Notes under the pieces: model-generated | The model's input: the letters and a program-made list of their open reading frames with translations, nothing else | Databases searched by the model: none | Told to the model about the DNA's origin: nothing | Position numbers and translations under genes: made by a program | Assembly: GCA_029213025.1 (NCBI GenBank) | Contig: JARGOZ010000027.1 | Coordinates: forward strand, 1 to 53,896 | Source: Verrucomicrobiales bacterium | GTDB taxonomy: Bacteria; Verrucomicrobiota; Verrucomicrobiia; Verrucomicrobiales; DEV007 | Direction of reading: 5' to 3' | Length of the DNA stretch: 53,896 bases | In this document: positions 36,227 to 50,690 of the stretch, one piece after another | Position numbering within the stretch: the first letter of the stretch is position 1 | How the letters are laid out: each line of letters opens with the position of its first letter

Positions 36227-39200
36227 TTTCTAAGCTGCCTACTCGGCAGTGAACGGCGGCGTCTTTGGCGGTATGCAGATCGATGATTTCTAAGCTGCCT
36301 ACTCGGCAGTGAACCCACCATTGAGTTGGCCATGAAATTCGCGGCTTTTCTAAGCTGCCTACTCGGCAGTGAACTTCTGGAGGGGCTTTTGCGGGATCTG
36401 GCGTATTTTCTAAGCTGCCTACTCGGCAGTGAACCCGCAGCCGGAAGCTCTTCCGTCTCGGCGGTATTTCTAAGCTGCCTACTCGGCAGTGAACATTTGC
36501 TGGATGGTTTCGAATTGTTCGTCGGTTTTCTAAGCTGCCTACTCGGCAGTGAACGATATCCGGGAGTTTCATCGTTCCCTCATCGCTTTCTAAGCTGCCT
36601 ACTCGGCAGTGAACGAAAACCTGCTCGGCGTGCCGCGCGGCTGGATTTTCTAAGCTGCCTACTCGGCAGTGAACGATATCGGCACTACCTGGTCTTTTGT
36701 GATTTGTTTCTAAGCTGCCTACTCGGCAGTGAACGGTGTGCTGTATAAGAATGTGTCCGGTGCTACTTTCTAAGCTGCCTAATCGGCAGTGAACAATTCC
36801 AAGGAACACTAGGATCTACATACAACTTTCTAAGCTGCCTACTCGGCAGTGAACGCTGGAGCCGCCAGCCTCGCTCACTGTGTAGCTTTCTAAGCTGCCT
36901 ACTCGGCAATGAACGTGCCGGTCCCCGCTTTGTCGGGACAAGCGGATTTCTAAGCTGCCTACTCGGCAGTGAACTATCGTCGGGAGGGATGGACGAAAAG
37001 GTTTTATTTCTAAGCTGCCTACTCGGCAGTGAACGCACAAATTGGGCGACGACTCAAGACCGTAGCTTTCTAAGCTGCCTACTCGGCAGTGAACACGCTG
37101 ATCCTCGCTGTGATCTCGTGGCTGATTTTCTAAGCTGCCTACTCGGCAGTGAACTCCTCCTTATGATACCGGGTATGGTTACACCTTTTCTAAGCTGCCT
37201 ACTCGGCAGTGAACATTTTCCGGCCCTCTGCGAGGATCTCCCGGTTTTTCTAAGCTGCCTACTCGGCAGTGAACGGCGCAGCGAACCGCACCGCTTGCGG
37301 ATCGATTTTCTAAGCTGCCTACTCGGCAGTGAACATCACACGGTTGTCTTTCGGCTTGTCTTTTTCTTTCTAAGCTGCCTACTCGGCAGTGAACATGAAG
37401 AGAAAGCCGCGTGGCGCTCCGCTATCTTTCTAAGCTGCCTACTCGGCAGTGAACCTGGCAATCTCTCAAGCGGTTGAATCCTCGCATTTCTAAGCTGCCT
37501 ACTCGGCAGTGAACGAGATGGCTGGTACAATGACGTTGACGCGGAATTTCTAAGCTGCCTACTCGGCAGTGAACTATGTACCAGTCTTCGGTGCCCGAGT
37601 CGTCGATTTCTAAGCTGCCTACTCGGCAGTGAACTCCGACGGAAGTAACGGCAGTGCGGCGTTTGCTTTCTAAGCTGCCTACTCGGCAGTGAACTTGGAG
37701 TTCCGCAATCTGGGAAAACTGGGTATTTTCTAAGCTGCCTACTCGGTAGTGAACACAAAGCGCCGATTGAGCCGGTATGAAAAACGTTTCTAAGCTGCCT
37801 ACTCGGCAGTGAACTGCTGCGCCAGATCGACGAATCGATTGCGGCTTTTCTAAGCTGCCTACTCGGCAGTGAACAGGGAAATGAACAGCCCGGAACTGTT
37901 CGCAGATTTCTAAGCTGCCTACTCGGCAGTGAACATTGTCTTGAGCGCCCATCGAACGCCGTCAGCTTTCTAAGCTGCCTACTCGGCAGTGAACGCGTCC
38001 TTGAACGCGGCGAGTGTTTTCTCGTATTTCTAAGCTGCCTACTCGGCAGTGAACGCGGCGGCACTCGCAGGGATGAATCTCTATAATTTCTAAGCTGCCT
38101 ACTCGGCAGTGAACACACAAAAAGCCCGCGATCAGGGCTGGTCAGATTTCTAAGCTGCCTACTCGGCAGTGAACGCTTATGCCGACCGATACCGGGTGGA
38201 GATCCGTTTCTAAGCTGCCTACTCGGCAGTGAACTTTAAGAGCCAGATCCCACCCGATCAGCTGGATTTCTAAGCTGCCTACTCGGCAGTGAACAACGCG
38301 ACTCTGAACGAGCTCACGCAGAAACTTTTCTAAGCTGCCTACTCGGCAGTGAACTCCATCCCCTGGGCGATAAATTTCCGCGTCGATTTCTAAGCTGCCT
38401 ACTCGGCAGTGAACCTGCGGATGTGGCGAAAGTCCGCCTTGGTCCATTTCTAAGCTGCCTACTCGGCAGTGAACAAAATTGGCCACAAGCCAGGGGATAT
38501 TTTCGCTTTCTAAGCTGCCTACTCGGCAGTGAACGAAACCTGCTATGGACAATAAAGGTTATTATCTTTCTAAGCTGCCTACTCGGCAGTGAACATCCGC
38601 GACAGTGCGGGCGATCTGACGGCGGATTTCTAAGCTGCCTACTCGGCAGTGAACGTAACAAGGTAGCCAGCCAGGGCGTACTATCATTTCTAAGCTGCCT
38701 ACTCGGCAGTGAACAGATTGCTGAGGCTGTAATTGTATCAGAGTTATTTCTAAGCTGCCTACTCGGCAGTGAACGTTCCTGCGTCCGGTTCTGTCGACTG
38801 GGATGTTTTCTAAGCTGCCTACTCGGCAGTGAACTACGTGATCTCGATCGAGTCGCCCAGCTCACGTTTCTAAGCTGCCTACTCGGCAGTGAACGATAAT
38901 CGCGAGTCCGCCACCTGCGGGAGAATTTTCTAAGCTGCCTACTCGGCAGTGAACGCATAATGACCCCGCTTTTCAACAAGATCACTTTTCTAAGCTGCCT
39001 ACTCGGCAGTGAACGGGGCTTTCCATATTTCTCAGCCTCTCTATATTTTCTAAGCTGCCTACTCGGCAGTGAACGATCGGTTTGCCCATTTTTGGAGAGA
39101 CTCACTTTTCTAAGCTGCCTACTCGGCAGTGAACATGTTTACGAAGTTCAAGCTTGAGCTTCCGAATTTCTAAGCTGCCTACTCGGCAGTGAACGAACCG

Positions 39201-42194
39201 CTCCTGAAGCGCCGCAAGCTAAAACTTTTCTAAGCTGCCTACTCGGCAGTGAACAACATAACCGGCGTTTTCACCGTCACCGTCAATTTCTAAGCTGCCT
39301 ACTCGGCAGTGAACACGACTTGCTTTCCAGCTTGCGGGAAGATTTATTTCTAAGCTGCCTACTCGGCAGTGAACATGTGTAATAAGTTCGACCAACCATT
39401 ACCAATTTTCTAAGCTGCCTACTCGGCAGTGAACTCAGCGAACCGTTACGTGGATCAAACGCCATCTTTCTAAGCTGCCTACTCGGCAGTGAACACATTG
39501 TTCAATCAACAGTCTTTTGCATTTTTTTTCTAAGCTGCCTACTCGGCAGTGAACAGGTGTCATGCGGATTAGATGTTGTCGTTCCATTTCTAAGCTGCCT
39601 ACTCGGCAGTGAACAACTAATGTATATACACGCTTTTTAAGGGTGATTTCTAAGCTGCCTACTCGGCAGTGAACCGTCTTGTTAGCCTCTTTGGTCGCTC
39701 ATGTGATTTCTAAGCTGCCTACTCGGCAGTGAACCACAATTGGCAGATTATTGGCAATGAATTCCGTTTCTAAGCTGCCTACTCGGCAGTGAACGCCAGC
39801 TATACCGCCAGTTCCACGAACTCCCCTTTCTAAGCTGCCTACTCGGCAGTGAACGGACCCAGATCACATCGATATCACCTGCTACCTTTCTAAGCTGCCT
39901 ACTCGGCAGTGAACTCCAATCAGACCGCCCGCCGAAACCGGCGATATTTCTAAGCTGCCTACTCGGCAGTGAACACTCATCCGGGGCTGACGCTCCTTAC
40001 GTATGTTTTCTAAGCTGCCTACTCGGCAGTGAACGAGTGCCTGTTGGTGTCCGGCCGGGTTTTTTGTTTCTAAGCTGCCTACTCGGCAGTGAACATGACC
40101 ACACCGCTCCCGCCGGACTTATCACTTTTCTAAGCTGCCTACTCGGCAGTGAACTGGGCATGGGTGTGGTATGGACTTACGTTGTGTTTCTAAGCTGCCT
40201 ACTCGGCAGTGAACCCTGATATACCTCGCAGCCGCCCTTTTCGGCTTTTCTAAGCTGCCTACTCGGCAGTGAACTTGGAATTGCTGGATTTCGGTGAGTG
40301 CCTGTTTTTCTAAGCTGCCTACTCGGCAGTGAACTCCACGCGCACCGTAACCGCTACCGTATCCGATTTCTAAGCTGCCTACTCGGCAGTGAACCGGCGA
40401 ACCGGCGGCACCGGTCTTATCATTTGTTTCTAAGCTGCCTACTCGGCAGTGAACATGCGGGAGCCGTTGGAGTGTTTTCACCCGGATTTCTAAGCTGCCT
40501 ACTCGGCAGTGAACTTGATCTTCAGCGCATCGCCATAGTGATCCCATTTCTAAGCTGCCTACTCGGCAGTGAACATATATTCGCCCATGATCTGGAGCTG
40601 GTCTACTTTCTAAGCTGCCTACTCGGCAGTGAACAGCAATTATAATTGACTTAGTATTATCCCACGTTTCTAAGCTGCCTACTCGGCAGTGAACGATTTT
40701 CGAAACGCAATGACAGATAAAAAGCATTTCTAAGCTGCCTACTCGGCAGTGAACCCGATCTTGAACCGCTTTTAATCGCGTCATTATTTCTAAGCTGCCT
40801 ACTCGGCAGTGAACGGCAGATAGCCCTGCTCCCGCCACTTCTCCCATTTCTAAGCTGCCTACTCGGCAGTGAACGATCTGGCGGAGGTGAAGCGCGGCTG
40901 GCGGGATTTCTAAGCTGCCTACTCGGCAGTGAACTCGGGCGCAGCAGGTTATCCTCACAGGTGATCTTTCTAAGCTGCCTACTCGGCAGTGAACGATGAG
41001 TCGGCTGTTACGCTCCCGGGATTGTATTTCTAAGCTGCCTACTCGGCAGTGAACATTTCACGCCGCAATCTGGAAGTATCGTCTCATTTCTAAGCTGCCT
41101 ACTCGGCAGTGAACTGGGTGACTATCTGTCGACACACACCTTTTATTTTCTAAGCTGCCTACTCGGCAGTGAACGTCGAGCGCTTCCGCGCGCGCCGCTT
41201 TTCTTTTTTCTAAGCTGCCTACTCGGCAGTGAACAGGGACCTACCGGGATTACGCAATATGCGAAGTTTCTAAGCTGCCTACTCGGCAGTGAACAACCAT
41301 TTCGCTATCAGAAAGGGTGTTCCCTTTTTCTAAGCTGCCTACTCGGCAGTGAACTAACTTATCGCCTGTAAACACCTCACTTGTAATTTCTAAGCTGCCT
41401 ACTCGGCAGTGAACATGCCGTTTAGGATGCCCTCTTTGATTGCTATTTTCTAAGCTGCCTACTCGGCAGTGAACTGACGCTCTTTCCTGCACCTCAAATT
41501 CTGCCATTTCTAAGCTGCCTACTCGGCAGTGAACTTTCGCCTAACTCATCAACAAAACTCCCGGTATTTCTAAGCTGCCTACTCGGCAGTGAACATGGGC
41601 GTCCCGATCCGCGTCGAAGTGGTCGATTTCTAAGCTGCCTACTCGGCAGTGAACATCGGCCCGTTTTGTCGTGGGCGAAGGCGGCGTTTCTAAGCTGCCT
41701 ACTCGGCAGTGAACTAGAGGTTCACCCCGTTTCCGGCTTGCCTCAATTTCTAAGCTGCCTACTCGGCAGTGAACCCCAACCGAAACTCACGCGCCCAGAA
41801 ATACCGTTTCTAAGCTGCCTACTCGGCAGTGAACCGTATCGAGTTCGCAGAGCAGTGGCGGCGGATTTTCTAAGCTGCCTACTCGGCAGTGAACACAAAG
41901 TCCCGGTTGTAGGGTCAAAAGAATAATTTCTAAGCTGCCTACTCGGCAGTGAACTCGAGATTCGCCGAAGGTGTCCCCTGGACGATTTTCTAAGCTGCCT
42001 ACTCGGCAGTGAACGAACCGACCTCGACCACATCACCACCGCCATATTTCTAAGCTGCCTACTCGGCAGTGAACTTCCCGATGGTCTACAACCTCAATTA
42101 GTCCGTTTTCTAAGCTGCCTACTCGGCAGTGAACTTAGAGCCGCCTGGACCTTGTGGTAATTTTCTTTTCTAAGCTGCCTACTCGGCAGTGAAC
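36227..42194 (-). CRISPR. Type I-F CRISPR array, 100 repeats of 28 bp and 99 spacers of 32 bp
   Basis: The 28-bp repeat recurs every 60 bp without exception from 36227 to 42194, giving 100 repeats and 99 spacers of exactly 32 bp. Read on the minus strand it starts GTTCACTGCC, has stem CTGCC/GGCAG around loop GAGTA and ends CTTAGAAA, which is the type I-F (Ypest/Csy) repeat; the last 8 nt form the crRNA 5' handle. Transcription is therefore leftward, matching the cas genes, and the leader is at 42195 upward. 97 repeats are identical. Single changes occur at 36782 (loop), 36909 (outer stem pair becomes G-U) and 37747 (breaks the stem), all in the leader-distal quarter. The 28/60-bp phasing leaves frames open across many units, which makes false protein-coding frames. 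Confidence 0.98.
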
Positions 42195-42339: not shown

Positions 42340-43308
42340 TCAAAATGGCTCTTCTAAATCAATAGAGCCGCCCAAAGCCTGAGCCTTCACTGAATCAAAC
42401 ATGAAGTTCATCGCGTTGTGATCGGTGAATGCCTGCAGGCATTCTATACGAAATTCCTGCTCACCGAGATTTTGCTTCGCGCCCAGAAAGGCCCAGGGAA
42501 GCACGAGCGCATCTTTGACGAGGTCTGCAACGTCAAACACCAGGGCTCCGCGTCTCGTTTTGCCATGCATAACGGCAAAACCGTGGGGGATACCTAACAC
42601 CCAAAGCGTAGTAGCACCCAAACCGTAAGCGAGGTAATTGCCATGGTTCAAAAAAGCGTTGGCTTTGTCAGCACCATCGTGCTGCCGGGTGAATTTCGAT
42701 TGCCCGGTTGTTCGAGCGGCAAATTTGTAGAGCGACTTTGTCAATGTCGCTTCAAGTTGTAATAATTTGCCCACAGAGGGTGCGTCTGCTATTTCGGAAC
42801 GATTCTTCGAAAAAGCATTCGCTATCACTGGATCCTCCGAGCAGAACCCATGTTCGCGAAGCGTTCTGTCTTTGCTCCAGATCTTTTCGATAAAATCTAA
42901 CCGGGTAAATTGAAACTGCTTCGCTACGCTGAGGCGCTTAGCATCATCCCACCACCAACTGAGCCAGCCCTGGATGTATTCAGTAGGACGATATTCACTC
43001 TGGGGGGACAACCACTCAATTTCGGTTGCCATTAAAAGAGGGGTCGACCCACCGCCGCAAAAACCGACCATCACTCCCGCCGATGCCAATAGCCTCATGG
43101 CTGCCTGTGTGATGGAAGTTCCCGTTCCTAAAAGAAGGCATGTCGTGTTAGCAATCGGAATATTCCAATACTTACTGCCATCGCCCTTGGCATCCTCCAT
43201 AAGATAGAGGACGCGGCCATCCTTTTGCATCACCCGGCATTTCTCGAGATAATAGAGATTGGCCCGCTTGGAATGCAGGATTGCTTTCAGGTTACTGATC
43301 GTTTCCAT
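42340..43308 (-). CDS. cas1: CRISPR-associated integrase Cas1, type I-F
   Basis: 322 residues, the I-F length (about 325). The metal-binding catalytic triad is visible: E186 in KLLQLEATLTKSLYK, H248 in GFAVMHGKTRRGALVFD, and D259/D262 in FDVADLVKD. The N-terminal beta-domain (ANLYYLEKCRVMQKDGRVLYL) and the GGGSTPLLM turn are typical. Cas1 with the Cas2 domain of Cas2-3 integrates new spacers at the leader end. Unusually, cas1 is the last gene of the operon, directly before the leader and 29 bp after cas6f, instead of standing upstream of cas2-3. This places the integrase gene beside its site of action. Confidence 0.96.
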   Translation of the reverse strand: METISNLKAILHSKRANLYYLEKCRVMQKDGRVLYLMEDAKGDGSKYWNIPIANTTCLLLGTGTSITQAAMRLLASAGVMVGFCGGGSTPLLMATEIEWLSPQSEYRPTEYIQGWLSWWWDDAKRLSVAKQFQFTRLDFIEKIWSKDRTLREHGFCSEDPVIANAFSKNRSEIADAPSVGKLLQLEATLTKSLYKFAARTTGQSKFTRQHDGADKANAFLNHGNYLAYGLGATTLWVLGIPHGFAVMHGKTRRGALVFDVADLVKDALVLPWAFLGAKQNLGEQEFRIECLQAFTDHNAMNFMFDSVKAQALGGSIDLEEPF

Positions 43309-44978: not shown

Positions 44979-45878
44979 TTAGTTAGTTTGTTTACAAGTG
45001 TACAGATTGTTTTCCGAGTCGAAATGATAGTGCCAAAGAATATCGTCTACGGAAGAAAGGCGATGTGGCATTTTGAATTCACCAAGCGTAACGACTGCCT
45101 CTGCAAATCGGTGAGGTGTTTCAGGGTCCCGTTGATTAAGAGCGGTAGCGGGTTCAGTCAGCGCGTGGAACCCGGTAGCAATAGGGACAATCCAGCCTTT
45201 ATATTTTCGTGATCCCTTGTCCCAGGCGACCTTTTCGTGAGGTTTGTCTTCGTTGGGAAGGGTGCTGCATTTTTGGGTGACTGAAACGGCATCCAGGACA
45301 GCTTCCAGCGCATCTTTGCCTTCCCTCATAGCTTCGATCATCAAGTCGCTTCGCTCTAATAAGGCATAGCCAGGCATAAGGCTCGCTTGTAACCGTTTCG
45401 CCTCTCCAGGATAATTGTCTGAAGTCTTGTCGAGTTTTGCAATTTTGGGTTTCCCCAGCTTTTGAATGACTCCGCCTGCCATTCGCATTTTCAGTAGTTC
45501 AGCGTAAACGGAATCGAGAAACTCGTCGTGTTCAACTGCACTGACTCCTGAAAATTCAATGACGAGAGAAATGGTAAGATGACATTTAGGCTCTTCGACG
45601 AACGATGGTGAATTTCCGTCTTTCTTCAGTGGGTGCCGTTCACCAATCAGGGATGTGACGTAACCCGAACGATGAGCCCGTAACTTAAATTGGTGGGATA
45701 CAACTCCGACTCGAAGGGCATTAAATTTCGAGAACTTCGTATCCGTAAATTTGCGCTGTAAAGCATGAACTGCGCCCAGCCAAGCTGTCATGGCCGGAAA
45801 ACCAACGGTGAACGGACTTGAAAACGCATTGGCGTCTGAGATCACTATTCGAGGAATCGTAAGGATATTTTGAATCAT
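44979..45878 (-). CDS. cas5f: Cascade protein Cas5f (Csy2)
   Basis: 299 residues, slightly shorter than P. aeruginosa Csy2 (about 327). Segments typical of the family are LTIPRIVISDANAFSSPFTVGFPAMTAWLGAVHALQR at 6-42, VVSHQFKLRAHR near 59-70, and LMPGYALLERSDLMIEAM near 170-187. Near the C-terminus, GWIVPIATGFHALTEPATALNQRDPETPHRFAEAVVTLGEF matches the strongly conserved Csy2 block. With Cas8f it caps the 5' handle of the crRNA. It is 9 bp after cas8f. Confidence 0.93.
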   Translation of the reverse strand: MIQNILTIPRIVISDANAFSSPFTVGFPAMTAWLGAVHALQRKFTDTKFSKFNALRVGVVSHQFKLRAHRSGYVTSLIGERHPLKKDGNSPSFVEEPKCHLTISLVIEFSGVSAVEHDEFLDSVYAELLKMRMAGGVIQKLGKPKIAKLDKTSDNYPGEAKRLQASLMPGYALLERSDLMIEAMREGKDALEAVLDAVSVTQKCSTLPNEDKPHEKVAWDKGSRKYKGWIVPIATGFHALTEPATALNQRDPETPHRFAEAVVTLGEFKMPHRLSSVDDILWHYHFDSENNLYTCKQTN

Positions 45879-47174: not shown

Positions 47175-47218
47175 GTCTACAGGTTAGGTTATTAGGAAGC
47201 TCCGTCAATAAAAAATAT

Positions 47219-47237
47219 CCATATAAACTGCATTTTA
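47219..47237 (+). promoter_or_regulatory. PAM plus partial protospacer for the crRNA-like guide, upstream of cas8f
   Basis: CC at 47219-47220 is the type I-F PAM. The 17 bases that follow (47221-47237) match the first 17 bases of the guide's spacer (47315-47331) except at position 12. In I-F complexes every sixth crRNA base (6, 12, 18...) is flipped out and need not pair. Matching stops after position 17, which favours binding without cleavage. The site lies 45-63 bp upstream of the cas8f start codon, within the A/T-rich DNA where its promoter must be. Confidence 0.85.
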
Positions 47238-47280
47238 AAACATTTATGTTCTGAAATTTGCAGACTGCTTATACGGAGCT

Positions 47281-47367
47281 AGATTCTTTCTCCTGGGGAG
47301 ACCTAGCTTAGAAAATATAAACTGCCTTTTATTGAGAGGGCTTACTGCCGCATAGGCAGCTTAAATG
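47281..47367 (+). ncRNA. creR: CreR-type crRNA-like guide RNA, antiparallel to the cas genes
   Basis: Plus-strand order: a hairpin region (AGCTAG 47277-47282 pairs with CTAGCT 47303-47308, enclosing TCTCC-TGG-GGAGA), then the exact I-F 5' handle CTTAGAAA (47307-47314). A 25-nt spacer-like segment follows (47315-47339), then a degenerate repeat (47340-47367) sharing 21 of 28 bases with the array repeat. The latter keeps a perfect CTGCC/GGCAG stem around loop GCATA, so Cas6f could bind and cut it. The 5' end is a guess based on TTATAC at 47269-47274 as a -10 box. The spacer pairs with the site upstream of cas8f. Cas-regulating RNAs of this design are known from type I and V systems, where they direct Cascade to repress cas promoters. 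Transcription has not been shown here. Confidence 0.8.
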
Positions 47368-47423: not shown

Positions 47424-50400
47424 TTACTCATACAGCCCCAGTTGATCATTGTAATTAAGGGCACGAGGCTTGTCGTCGAAATGCGCAACAGTGATCTCCC
47501 CATAAATTTCTGAAAGTTTCATAACCCCGCCTCCCGTTTCTTCAGAAAGCTTTTTCAGGGCTATTAAGTAGTCTCGCGATAGCCAAGTCCGTTCGGGATA
47601 TTGGCATTCAAAATCAGTCTGCGTTATTCCGAGCGGACCATTCTGATCAGCGGGAATTCCATTTTCCAAGCGGGCGAATTTCCCTCTCAATCTTTCGGAA
47701 AAGAACAGCTTCTCCGAGTCAGGGTCGTAAACTAAACTCAGAATTTTAGATTGTGCCGACCTTCTGAAGCGGCAGTAGGTTTGAGGAAGACCTGTCAGCC
47801 ACCAGGAACCAGAAACGAAACCAAAGAGTGATTCCGGTGATCTCTGGTCAAAGGAGCGCAGTCGAGACTCAATGGCTAAGTGTTCGATCCCGATTAAGGT
47901 GCTTCTCTCACCATTATGCCTGATGCGTGGGGTGGCGTCGATTTTTTCTCCCAACGCTTCGTTGTCCACGATGCTGAGAATGGAATGGTTTGCCAATTTG
48001 AATGCAGACACTTCATACCCTGGTCGCCGGAAATAGATCTCATCGTTTTGATCCTTGCCTCGATAGGCATTGATGTTGTACTCGAGAATACCAATATTCG
48101 GTTTTTCCGGAGTTATCTCACGGTGCCTTGCAACTCGGCCTGACATTTGGATAATCGAACGGAATGAGGAAGGTTCGATCACTGCCCAGTCGAAATCGTG
48201 ATCGCGGCCGACTTCTTCGACAGGCGTTGCAATCACGATAAAACAAACATTCTTTTGTTGAGGTGACCCGGTATCCAAATGGTGTCTGATCGTTTCGTCG
48301 TTCCTTAAAAAACCGTCGGCATTCTCTTTTCGTTTTAGAATAGAATCCAGGTATTCTTCCTGCTTATTCCTCATCAAAAGAAGCTGGCGACTGTGATAAG
48401 TCATTATGTGGATACCCCAATTCTCTGGTATCGGTGTATTGTATAGATGTTGAGTGAGCGAGACTGCAGTTTTAATTGTGGCAACTCGAACGACTCCAAG
48501 TGAAACTGATTTATCAGAGATTGTATCGATCGTGTGGTGGTCCCGATGCTTTGCTAAACATTCGTTCAGAACCGCCGTAAAATAGGTATCCTCTTCATCA
48601 GACTCTGGATAGTCAAGTGGCGTTGGGATAACGTTCCCCTTTCGTCTTGGTGGCAATTTGTCTAACTCCAATACGCGTTTATTGGTAAAGTCATTATGCC
48701 GCTTTTGGAATTGCTCAAAACCTTGAAGCGATTCGAATCGGGGTGCTCTAAATTCATCCACCCAAACACAATCTATGTCCATGGAGCAATTATTTTGGGA
48801 CTTTTGATATAAGGTCCAACCCTGACTGTAGGCCTGAAAATAACCTTCAGCCATACTGGGCGGTATCGTAGCTGACGATAACAAAACTCGCTTGCCCAGC
48901 ATTCCTGCCTGGAAAATTAGCCGACCAATTGCAATCTCATCTTCTCCGACGAAATCATCAATTTCGTCAATAACTAGATCTGATGAAAGAAGCCTCAGAG
49001 AAGGCAGTATATATCGCCCACCTCTAGTCGTTTCAGTAGCTCCCATCAAATGGTCAATTGTGCATACTGTAATCGGAGCCGCTAGAAACATCTTTTGTTT
49101 TTCCTTTTCCAGAATGACGTCGAAACATTTATTGGCGAAATCACCAGTGAATCTGATTTCCCCGGTAAATAAATCGTTCCGTGATTCCGATCCGGTCGAG
49201 AAATTATCTTTCTCTGATTTGTTGAGTTCATGAAGCTCTTGAACGGCGGTTGAACCGATAATGGTACCAAGCTCATTTCTTTTCAAACCGAGGCGAACTT
49301 TAAATTCATCACCCGTTTGAAGCGTCAAGGTTCTCAAGCCCAACGCTACAGAAAGCCTCATCCCGCACGGTTCATTTACGCTTGCTGCAGCCATGATTTT
49401 TGAGTTGGCGATGGTTTTTCCGCAGCCAGTGCTAGCCAAATTGACACAAAAGAATCCTTTTTTGCCTTCCTCACCAGTTCCGATTTTGGCAAGTATCTTT
49501 TTGACCGCTTTATCCTGCCAGTCATATTTTTCGGGACTCGGCTTCAAAAACCTTTTACACTCTACCCCTGGTAAATCCTGCTCAATAATCGGCAGATGGC
49601 GAGGTATCCTCCTGGCACTTTTTGCTACATGATAGAGGTGGTTATCCAGGCGCTGGCGAGGGGTTTTATCTAAATTTGTGTTAGCTAGCAATTTAAGGTT
49701 ACTGATCCACTCCTGGTTCTCGGGTTGGCTGGAATAGTTATAGTCTCCCAGCATTAGGCAAAGCCTGGCATGATGCAGGACCGATCGGTAAGCTCCGTTC
49801 GAGATCGATTCTTCAACAAGATGGAGCTGGGTTTTCAGTTCTTTCGCATATTTCTTAACGCTTACGAGCCACTCAGGAGAATTGGTCAGCAAATCTGATG
49901 AAAAGCTGTAACACTTATCAAAATCGCTGTCTTTGGATTTGTCATTTACATTGGAATAATCCCAATCAACTGTGATTTGAGTTAGTGTATCGTCCAAGCT
50001 TTCTGAATGTTCCCCTCTGTAGTCGAGTTCACAAAGTGGCATCCGGTGATGGCTCAAGATTAGCCATAGTAGGAGTTTTAGACAGTTAGAATCGATTGCT
50101 TCAAATGGCGAATTCGATCCTTCGTCTTTCAGGCTGGAACGGATTTTCTTTTCGTCGAAAATTCCTTTTTTAAGTTGGTCCAGCCAGTCTTCATTTTCTG
50201 GATACGCATTGTAAAGCGCCCGTAAGAAAAGAACCGATAGCCACTCATGCCTGTGAGGGTCGCCTACGATCCCACCTTTCAGTATTTTGGCCTGAAAGAA
50301 TTTGTTAGATTTTCCCCAATCATGAAAAATGGCAGCAAGGGACGTAAGAGATTTGATAAGAGGCAAATACTTCCATCTTTCATTTTCCATATACTGTCCA

Positions 50401-50690
50401 GTTTCCGTCCCTGTCTCATTTACCGGCACTTGACCCGTGGCGTTAAATTCATGCTGCTTGCCAACGATCCAGAGTAGCTGACTCCGGGTGCGCGACCTTT
50501 GCCAGAGGCAGGCAACTGCGGTGGATTTGCTGGCCGTTTTGCGAAGTTCTGTGTGCAGGGCTTCGAGTCCTTCGTGGGTAATAATGGTTTGCCAGGTGTT
50601 GTCACCAATCCGTTCCGCAAAAGCATCAAGCACCATCCGGGTTCGCTGCAGCGCCTTTTTTTTGCACTGGGAGATGAGAATGACCTGCAT
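47424..50690 (-). CDS. cas3: Cas2-Cas3 fusion nuclease-helicase, type I-F
   Basis: 1088 residues. Residues 1 to about 80 are the Cas2 domain (MQVILISQCKKKALQRTRMVLDAFAERIG) that marks subtype I-F. The HD nuclease follows, with AAIFHDWGKSNKFFQ (H123-D124), HRHEW near 147-150 and LSHHRMPL near 212-219. The SF2 helicase has Walker A ASTGCGKT (419-426), DEID Walker B (575-578), SSAT (motif III), VEEVGRDHDFDW, and MSGRVARHR (motif VI). It degrades targeted DNA after Cascade binding and joins Cas1 for adaptation. It is first in the cas gene order and separated from cas8f by the CreR-type element. No clear promoter was identified in the upstream 50691-51074 region. Confidence 0.97.
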   Translation of the reverse strand: MQVILISQCKKKALQRTRMVLDAFAERIGDNTWQTIITHEGLEALHTELRKTASKSTAVACLWQRSRTRSQLLWIVGKQHEFNATGQVPVNETGTETGQYMENERWKYLPLIKSLTSLAAIFHDWGKSNKFFQAKILKGGIVGDPHRHEWLSVLFLRALYNAYPENEDWLDQLKKGIFDEKKIRSSLKDEGSNSPFEAIDSNCLKLLLWLILSHHRMPLCELDYRGEHSESLDDTLTQITVDWDYSNVNDKSKDSDFDKCYSFSSDLLTNSPEWLVSVKKYAKELKTQLHLVEESISNGAYRSVLHHARLCLMLGDYNYSSQPENQEWISNLKLLANTNLDKTPRQRLDNHLYHVAKSARRIPRHLPIIEQDLPGVECKRFLKPSPEKYDWQDKAVKKILAKIGTGEEGKKGFFCVNLASTGCGKTIANSKIMAAASVNEPCGMRLSVALGLRTLTLQTGDEFKVRLGLKRNELGTIIGSTAVQELHELNKSEKDNFSTGSESRNDLFTGEIRFTGDFANKCFDVILEKEKQKMFLAAPITVCTIDHLMGATETTRGGRYILPSLRLLSSDLVIDEIDDFVGEDEIAIGRLIFQAGMLGKRVLLSSATIPPSMAEGYFQAYSQGWTLYQKSQNNCSMDIDCVWVDEFRAPRFESLQGFEQFQKRHNDFTNKRVLELDKLPPRRKGNVIPTPLDYPESDEEDTYFTAVLNECLAKHRDHHTIDTISDKSVSLGVVRVATIKTAVSLTQHLYNTPIPENWGIHIMTYHSRQLLLMRNKQEEYLDSILKRKENADGFLRNDETIRHHLDTGSPQQKNVCFIVIATPVEEVGRDHDFDWAVIEPSSFRSIIQMSGRVARHREITPEKPNIGILEYNINAYRGKDQNDEIYFRRPGYEVSAFKLANHSILSIVDNEALGEKIDATPRIRHNGERSTLIGIEHLAIESRLRSFDQRSPESLFGFVSGSWWLTGLPQTYCRFRRSAQSKILSLVYDPDSEKLFFSERLRGKFARLENGIPADQNGPLGITQTDFECQYPERTWLSRDYLIALKKLSEETGGGVMKLSEIYGEITVAHFDDKPRALNYNDQLGLYE

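What the first reader, a model, noticed from the sequence alone, without database searches (positions are those of the whole stretch)
47219..47367. A crRNA-like guide between cas2-3 and cas8f targets its own cas promoter region
The gap holds an exact I-F 5' handle (CTTAGAAA, 47307-47314), a 25-nt spacer-like segment and a degenerate repeat with an intact Cas6f stem. The segment's first 17 nt match 47221-47237 except at position 12. That target is preceded by CC, the I-F PAM, with register exact to the base, and position 12 is a flipped-out crRNA base that needs no pairing. Beyond position 17 there is no similarity, which should allow binding but not Cas3 cutting. The target lies 45-63 bp upstream of cas8f. 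This is the layout of a Cas-regulating RNA (CreR) that makes Cascade repress its own operon and derepress it when Cascade is limiting or blocked by anti-CRISPRs. CreR guides are known in other type I and V systems; one in a PVC-lineage I-F locus appears new to me.
Basis: partly seen in the sequence, partly recalled or inferred. Interest (0 to 1): 0.95.

Follow-up and report, generated by a model that had tools for sequence, protein, structure and literature searches.

The report
CRISPR guide aimed at own cas8f
Between two genes of a bacterial CRISPR immune system lies a one-guide mini CRISPR array whose guide matches, next to the correct recognition motif, the DNA just upstream of the system's own cas8f gene, so the CRISPR complex likely turns down its own production; the same arrangement recurs with mostly different sequences in other bacteria, and switches of this kind are already known.

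Summary
Between cas2-3 and cas8f lies a mini-array: degenerate first repeat with exact 5' handle, 25-nt spacer, second repeat with intact Cas6f stem. Spacer positions 1-17 match CC-flanked DNA about 46 bp upstream of cas8f except at position 12; 0 of 20,000 shuffles reach this. Of 77 other I-F loci surveyed upstream of cas8f, 27 hold the same device, mostly with unlike sequences. Over these 28 pairs (window included), positions 1-5, 7-11 and 13-17 match in 400 of 420 cells, positions 6 and 12 mismatch in 34 of 56, and matching falls to chance at position 18. Spacers are mostly 18-20 or 25-28 nt, not 32. This is guide-target covariation in the register of the I-F complex. Published I-F1 biochemistry shows truncated complexes bind, more weakly, without Cas2/3 cutting. 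I support a CreR-like autorepressor (0.88); repression is untested and the window's promoter is not recognisable. The kind is known: an I-F CreA guide sits in the same gap in Acinetobacter (PMC10097628), and an I-F1 regulatory mini-array was reported by Shmakov 2023 (recalled). New member of a known kind; the register and length rule is the most useful addition.

The parts
47219..47220 (+). PAM, CC (reads GG on the cas8f strand)
   Evidence: CC is the I-F PAM (passages of PMC10097628) and precedes 27 of the 32 best guide matches in the survey, which did not require it
47221..47237 (+). target (protospacer) of the guide; its PAM lies 45-46 bp upstream of the cas8f start
   Evidence: 16 of 17 match to 47315-47331, mismatch at position 12; shuffle test
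47276..47314 (+). degenerate first repeat: long imperfect hairpin 47276-47309 in place of the canonical Cas6f stem, ending in the intact 5' handle
   Evidence: RNA fold; 9 of 20 identity to an I-F repeat consensus and 3 of 5 canonical stem pairs
47307..47314 (+). 5' handle CTTAGAAA
   Evidence: identical to the last 8 nt of the array repeat
47315..47339 (+). spacer (guide), 25 nt against 32 in the array; nt 1-17 carry the match
47340..47367 (+). second repeat, Cas6f stem CTGCC-GCATA-GGCAG at 47345-47359
   Evidence: Rfam RF01317 E 6.7e-4, below its gathering score
45888..47174 (-). cas8f (csy1), first gene downstream of the target, the likely regulated gene
   Evidence: TIGR02564, 185.5 bits, cut-off 169.4
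44979..45878 (-). cas5f (csy2)
   Evidence: TIGR02565
43932..44963 (-). cas7f (csy3)
   Evidence: TIGR02566
43338..43928 (-). cas6f (csy4), the predicted processing enzyme
   Evidence: TIGR02563
42340..43308 (-). cas1f, here downstream of cas6f
   Evidence: TIGR03637; order compared
47424..50690 (-). cas2-3 (Cas3f)
   Evidence: TIGR02562
36227..42194 (-). main I-F CRISPR array, 100 repeats by an exact 9-mer, 60-nt period (28-nt repeats, 32-nt spacers)

Best explanation
A mini CRISPR array between cas2-3 and cas8f carries a guide whose positions 1-17 match CC-flanked DNA just upstream of cas8f at 16 of 17 bases, and it is predicted to lead the system's own I-F Cascade there to repress the cas8f-cas5f-cas7f-cas6f operon without calling in Cas2/3 to cut. 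Shown: sequence, register, PAM, truncated spacer, and recurrence with covarying guide and target in 27 other loci. Inferred: a + strand transcript, Cas6f cleavage after the second stem, assembly of a Cascade about one Cas7f short, occlusion of the cas8f promoter, and release of repression when Cascade is scarce, occupied by ordinary crRNAs or blocked by anti-CRISPRs.
For: Exact handle, Cas6f stem, spacer, PAM and 16 of 17 match; 0 of 20,000 shuffles. Survey of up to 600 bp upstream of cas8f in 78 of 80 loci (window included): of 108 handle-like sites 32 had a match of at least 14 of 18 in their own gap, 27 of them next to CC though CC was not required; the same spacers tried on other loci gave 46 of 1,080, 3 of them next to CC. 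All 28 sites with at least 12 of 18 and CC, one per locus, were kept. Over them: 20 mismatches in 420 cells at positions 1-5, 7-11, 13-17; 34 in 56 at positions 6 and 12; position 18 matches 7 of 28 and positions 19-32 match 123 of 392. Spacers 18-20 nt in 17 loci and 25-28 in 9; first repeat more diverged than the second in 24 of 28; a pair in 28 of 33 loci with a gap of 200 bp or more upstream of cas8f against 0 of 42 with a shorter gap. In 9 of 21 divergent-type loci the best sigma-70-like element begins 1-3 nt past the PAM, 0.5 expected from shuffles. I-F1 Cascades with 20- and 26-nt spacers bind target but do not trigger Cas2/3. In an I-F CreA with a 20-nt spacer, mutating any of nt 2-5, 7-9 or 13-17 destroyed repression and disrupting pair 10, 12, 19 or 20 did not.
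Against: No transcript or repression data. No sigma-70-like promoter is recognisable in the window's gap; the best candidate, TTGACG 11 nt past the PAM, is weak (8 of 12) and would give an almost leaderless mRNA. The first repeat lacks a canonical Cas6f stem, so how the 5' end is made is unclear. The free RNA is predicted to fold guide positions from about 10 on into a hairpin. In the I-F1 work binding weakened as the spacer shortened, and a 14-nt spacer bound only weakly and did not hold back phage in vivo; 17 nt of pairing lies between that and the 20 nt that bound. The nearest relatives (53-57% Csy1) are known only as proteins here, so covariation was tested only against loci with 37-45% identical Csy1. 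50 of the 78 surveyed loci have no such pair upstream of cas8f, 5 of them despite a gap of 200 bp or more.
Confidence: 0.88

Rival explanations
1. The guide is the CreA antitoxin of a CreTA pair: Cascade represses a tiny toxic RNA or mini-ORF in the gap, not cas8f.
For: An I-F CreTA with the same layout (degenerate first repeat, 20-nt spacer, CC target) lies in the cas3-csy1 gap of three Acinetobacter species.
Against: There the gap is about 400 bp and holds a conserved 33-bp ORF with a Shine-Dalgarno motif. Here 44 bases lie between PAM and cas8f and 49 between the target and the position of a 28-nt first repeat, and no closed ORF with a Shine-Dalgarno-like start was found in either; ORFs without such a motif and untranslated toxic RNAs were not excluded. 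In 18 of 21 divergent-type loci cas8f (start extrapolated from the protein alignment) begins 46-59 bp past the PAM.
Confidence: 0.05
2. A decayed remnant of a CRISPR array or a stray self-acquired spacer with no function.
For: The first repeat is degenerate and the match covers only part of the spacer.
Against: The same design recurs in 27 other loci with mostly unlike sequences and with mismatches concentrated at positions 6 and 12; decay would scatter them. It lies on the strand opposite the main array.
Confidence: 0.03
3. The guide mainly represses its own divergent promoter, or both promoters, acting as a limiter of its own supply.
For: The target lies between cas8f and the mini-array, 49 bp from the position of a 28-nt first repeat, where a divergent promoter for the guide would also be expected.
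Against: In 9 of 21 divergent-type loci the best-scoring sigma-70 element has its -35 box 1-3 nt past the PAM and points at cas8f; guide promoters were not scored there, and none is recognisable here.
Confidence: 0.04

Closest known systems
I-F CreA of CreTA, Acinetobacter sp. WCHA45 (PMC10097628; passages and section 6 read)
   Same: cas3-csy1 gap, guide with diverged first and conserved second repeat, CC PAM, partial match of a 20-nt spacer, base 6 unpaired, all strictly required bases within positions 1-17
   Different: represses a toxin RNA with a 33-bp ORF; pairs at 19 and 20 as well and not at 11; here no such ORF was found and cas8f itself starts 45 bp away
CreR, cas-regulating RNAs (Liu 2023, not looked up; described in PMC12737573 and PMC13131331, passages read)
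   Same: crRNA-like guide with partial complementarity to its own cas promoter; autorepression relieved by crRNA competition and anti-CRISPRs
   Different: stated for I-B, I-E and V-A; this is I-F
Type I-F1 regulatory mini-arrays (Shmakov 2023, NAR, gkad495)
   Same: recalled from its abstract: mini-arrays partly complementary to cas promoters, cas8 above all, in many type I systems, one I-F1 example tested; text not held
   Different: I could not check whether this lineage, or the 17-nt and spacer-length rule, is in that paper
RacrIF1 and other phage RNA anti-CRISPRs (PMC10651486; passages)
   Same: stand-alone I-F repeat processed by Cas6f
   Different: [quoted passage not shown] here a full guide matches the cas8f upstream region

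Membership tests
CreR (cas-regulating RNA) | mini-array of two repeat-like sequences outside the main array, in the cas locus | tested here: met
   the first repeat keeps only the handle and a hairpin of its own
CreR (cas-regulating RNA) | spacer partly complementary to PAM-flanked DNA upstream of its own cas genes | tested here: met
CreR (cas-regulating RNA) | guide and target co-conserved in related loci | tested here: met
   28 pairs including the window, 78 loci examined; no close relative's DNA was available
CreR (cas-regulating RNA) | target overlaps a cas promoter | tested here: inconclusive
   9 of 21 divergent-type loci have a -35-like box 1-3 nt past the PAM, 0.5 expected; none recognisable in the window
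CreR (cas-regulating RNA) | RNA made, processed by Cas6 and loaded | not testable with these tools
   needs RNA data
CreR (cas-regulating RNA) | represses cas expression, relieved by crRNA or Acr | not testable with these tools
   needs reporter assays
CreTA (type VIII toxin-antitoxin) | toxin mini-ORF with a Shine-Dalgarno motif downstream of the target | tested here: not met
   no closed ORF with a Shine-Dalgarno-like start on either side of the target
Functional I-F immune array | near-identical repeats and 32-nt spacers | tested here: not met
   repeats diverged, spacer 25 nt

The most novel reading that the evidence does not exclude
Type I-F systems share one structural code for self-regulation: a guide that pairs in exactly three five-base segments (1-5, 7-11, 13-17), carried in a spacer cut by whole Cas7f steps (about 20 or 26 nt instead of 32), so that Cascade is locked in a bind-only state on its own promoter. 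The window extends this code to what is likely a member of the Verrucomicrobiota, with the first repeat replaced by a long hairpin that may tie the guide to its own Cas6f.
Probability: 0.6. Interest if true: 0.62.

Novelty: new member of a known kind. Interest (0 to 1): 0.52.

Why it matters
The survey gives a compact rule that may let such guides be read from sequence alone, could help to tell regulatory self-matching guides from dangerous self-targeting spacers, and offers a natural counterpart to the R-loop-length checkpoint seen in I-F1 biochemistry.

Tried and rejected
Close relatives: a search with the window's Csy1 hit only its own genome among 95 (94 others without a hit), and the Csy1 family was found in 2 of 387 phylum and 2 of 384 class genomes, the window's own and G198 both times (the two samples overlap), so covariation among close kin could not be tested. 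Viral contigs gave 7 loci; no pair was found in them and they are in no count. Promoter and terminator consensus scan: nothing useful in the gap. Anchored motif averaging and promoter scoring gave a pattern in other loci but only a weak candidate in the window. Idea that the guide hits other genomic sites: no support. CreTA reading: thought unlikely for lack of room and ORF.

Survey rows dropped or mixed: L086 (truncated cas8f) before all counts; L028 and L031 (under 200 bp upstream). cas8f starts were extrapolated from protein alignments. The gap was measured to the nearest upstream stretch of 300 or more open codons, which need not be cas2-3. L082/L083 (two Legionella, guides 16 of 17 alike) were both counted; without L083 the mismatches are 19 of 405 and 33 of 54. 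The next most alike guides share 14 of 17, the mean of all pairs is 6.3. When picking the best match, ties were broken by a seed test that skips position 6. Positions beyond the end of a short spacer in the 19-32 count read into the second repeat. Five loci aim a guide at DNA 155-265 bp upstream of a cas2-3 start (L017, L049, L053 second pair, L056, L058) and are outside the 28. L020 and L052 have other candidate pairs in their long gaps and count as 'without pair'; L071, L079 and L084 have gaps of 200 bp or more and no pair near cas8f; three loci had no determinable gap. Three further handle-like sites have a best match next to CC below 12 of 18 and were left out. One search also lists matches inside ordinary arrays, which I set aside by eye.

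Full report
WHAT IS THERE. The window holds a complete set of type I-F genes on the minus strand: cas2-3 (47424-50690), cas8f, cas5f, cas7f, cas6f and cas1f, each above the curated cut-off of its I-F NCBIfam model, then an array of 100 repeats (counted by an exact 9-mer) GTTCACTGCCGAGTAGGCAGCTTAGAAA at 36227-42194 with a 60-nt period. The 249-bp gap between cas2-3 and cas8f carries, on the opposite strand, a mini-array: a hairpin (47276-47309) in the place of a first repeat, overlapping the exact handle CTTAGAAA (47307-47314), a 25-nt spacer (47315-47339) and a second repeat (47340-47367) with the stem CTGCC-GCATA-GGCAG. Rfam's CRISPR-DR4 model finds the second repeat at E 6.7e-4, below its gathering score.

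THE MATCH. Spacer positions 1-17 equal 47221-47237 except position 12, and CC stands immediately 5' of that target. In 20,000 dinucleotide shuffles of 47175-47296 the best CC-flanked match was 13 of 17 and the best anywhere 15 of 17. Besides target and guide, one site in the 7.88-Mb assembly fits the pattern with 2 mismatches and none with fewer; the reversed control pattern has two.

THE SURVEY. A Csy1 alignment of 28 proteins brought 80 loci from GTDB species genomes, the best 80 of a longer list. I took 79 of them (L086 dropped) plus the window; 78 of these 80 have at least 200 bp upstream of cas8f. Within 600 bp upstream there are 108 handle-like sites (at least 7 of 8). Without asking for a PAM, 32 of 108 have a match of at least 14 of 18 in their own gap, 27 of them preceded by CC; the same spacers tried on ten other loci each give 46 of 1,080, 3 preceded by CC. 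All 28 sites with at least 12 of 18 and CC were taken as pairs, one per locus; the control gives 11 of 1,080 at that level. By record title the 27 loci besides the window are Gammaproteobacteria and Campylobacterota, one MAG labelled Alphaproteobacteria and one labelled proteobacterium.

THE RULE. Over the 28 pairs, positions 1-5, 7-11 and 13-17 show 20 mismatches in 420 cells; positions 6 and 12 show 34 in 56; position 18 matches in 7 of 28; positions 19-32 match in 123 of 392. Selection scored all 18 positions alike except for a tie-break that skips position 6, so the drop at 18 was not built in and the six-base rhythm hardly so. In I-F1 Cascade the spacer is held in 6-nt steps per Cas7f, L = 6N - 4 (section 7 of PMC7296934); that every sixth base is flipped out is recalled. 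Spacers are 18-20 nt in 17 loci, 25-28 in 9, one of 15 and one of 33: near the 20 and 26 nt of a complex short of two or one Cas7f. In Aggregatibacter I-F1 such complexes bind their target, more weakly than full ones, form short R-loops and do not trigger Cas2/3 (abstract, sections 7 and 8). Those tests used full pairing along the short spacer, so 17 nt of pairing was not itself tested there; a 14-nt spacer bound only weakly. The first repeat is less like the consensus than the second in 24 of 28 loci, equal in 3 and more alike in 1, as reported for CreA (PMC9458426, abstract and passages); the window is among the most extreme.

WHICH GENE. 28 of 33 loci with a gap of 200 bp or more upstream of cas8f hold a pair, 0 of 42 with a shorter gap, and 3 could not be measured; the contrast is partly built in, since a mini-array needs that room. 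Of 21 targets on the strand opposite cas8f, 18 have the PAM 46-59 bp from the (extrapolated) cas8f start, and in 9 of 21 the best sigma-70-like element begins 1-3 nt past the PAM, where shuffles predict 0.5. Two of seven targets on the cas8f strand begin 7 nt past a -10 box. The window has no such clear promoter; TTGACG 11 nt past the PAM is weak. Five loci aim a guide instead upstream of cas2-3, one of them (L053) in addition to a cas8f guide. The only other genome with Csy1 in the class sample, G198, has a mini-array upstream of a csy1 fragment with a weaker match (12 of 15 at non-sixth positions).

LITERATURE. Wang 2023 (PMC10097628; passages and section 6) describes, in the same cas3-csy1 gap of Acinetobacter I-F loci, a 20-nt guide with CC PAM and 17 paired bases (all but 6, 11 and 18) that represses a toxin RNA; mutating any of 2-5, 7-9 or 13-17 abolished repression, disrupting pair 10, 12, 19 or 20 did not, and loss of pair 1 had a partial effect. 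The required bases agree with the rule seen here; position 10, which matches in 25 of 28 pairs here, was dispensable there. CreR autorepression is stated for I-B, I-E and V-A (PMC13131331, passages) and for type I and V-A in general (PMC12737573, passages). Shmakov 2023 could not be read; from memory its abstract reports mini-arrays against cas8 promoters and one tested I-F1 case. Ten searches of the openly licensed library, of which I saw capped listings and passages of some papers, showed no Verrucomicrobiota I-F example and no statement of the spacer-length rule; subscription papers are not covered.

LINEAGE. SerC beside the locus is 83% identical to a partial one labelled Verrucomicrobiota bacterium and 75% to Coraliomargarita's, but SerCs labelled cyanobacterial reach 73-79% among the 120 hits listed. 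Verrucomicrobiota is likely, not proven.

VERDICT. Observation confirmed; a CreR-like autorepressor is the best explanation. What remains is expression, processing and repression, which need a bench.

Noticed in passing
window 42340-43308: cas1f lies downstream of cas6f, next to the array. Of 65 loci with a detectable cas1 (window included, 80 searched) 64 have it upstream of cas8f; only the window has it downstream.
   Followed up: partly
L077 15399-15690 and L075 15338-15515 (Providencia): Mini-array guides beyond the cas6f-like ORF match CC-flanked DNA (15 and 14 of 15 non-sixth positions) just upstream of a tiny ORF with a Shine-Dalgarno-like start (23 and 20 aa): possible I-F CreTA modules outside the cas3-csy1 gap.
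   Followed up: partly
L017, L049, L053, L056, L058: The same kind of guide matches DNA upstream of a cas2-3 start instead; L053 carries two mini-arrays, one for cas2-3 and one for cas8f.
   Followed up: partly
L053, L060, L061: The target lies about 230 bp upstream of cas8f, leaving room for another transcript; these three may be CreTA rather than CreR.
   Followed up: no
L005 1170-1310 (genome G198, same class): Mini-array with two identical Cas6f stems and a 21-nt spacer upstream of a csy1 fragment; G198 has csy1 pieces on three contigs.
   Followed up: partly
window 47324-47341: Guide positions from about 10 to the end are predicted to form a 7-bp hairpin in the free RNA, which could affect loading.
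   Followed up: no
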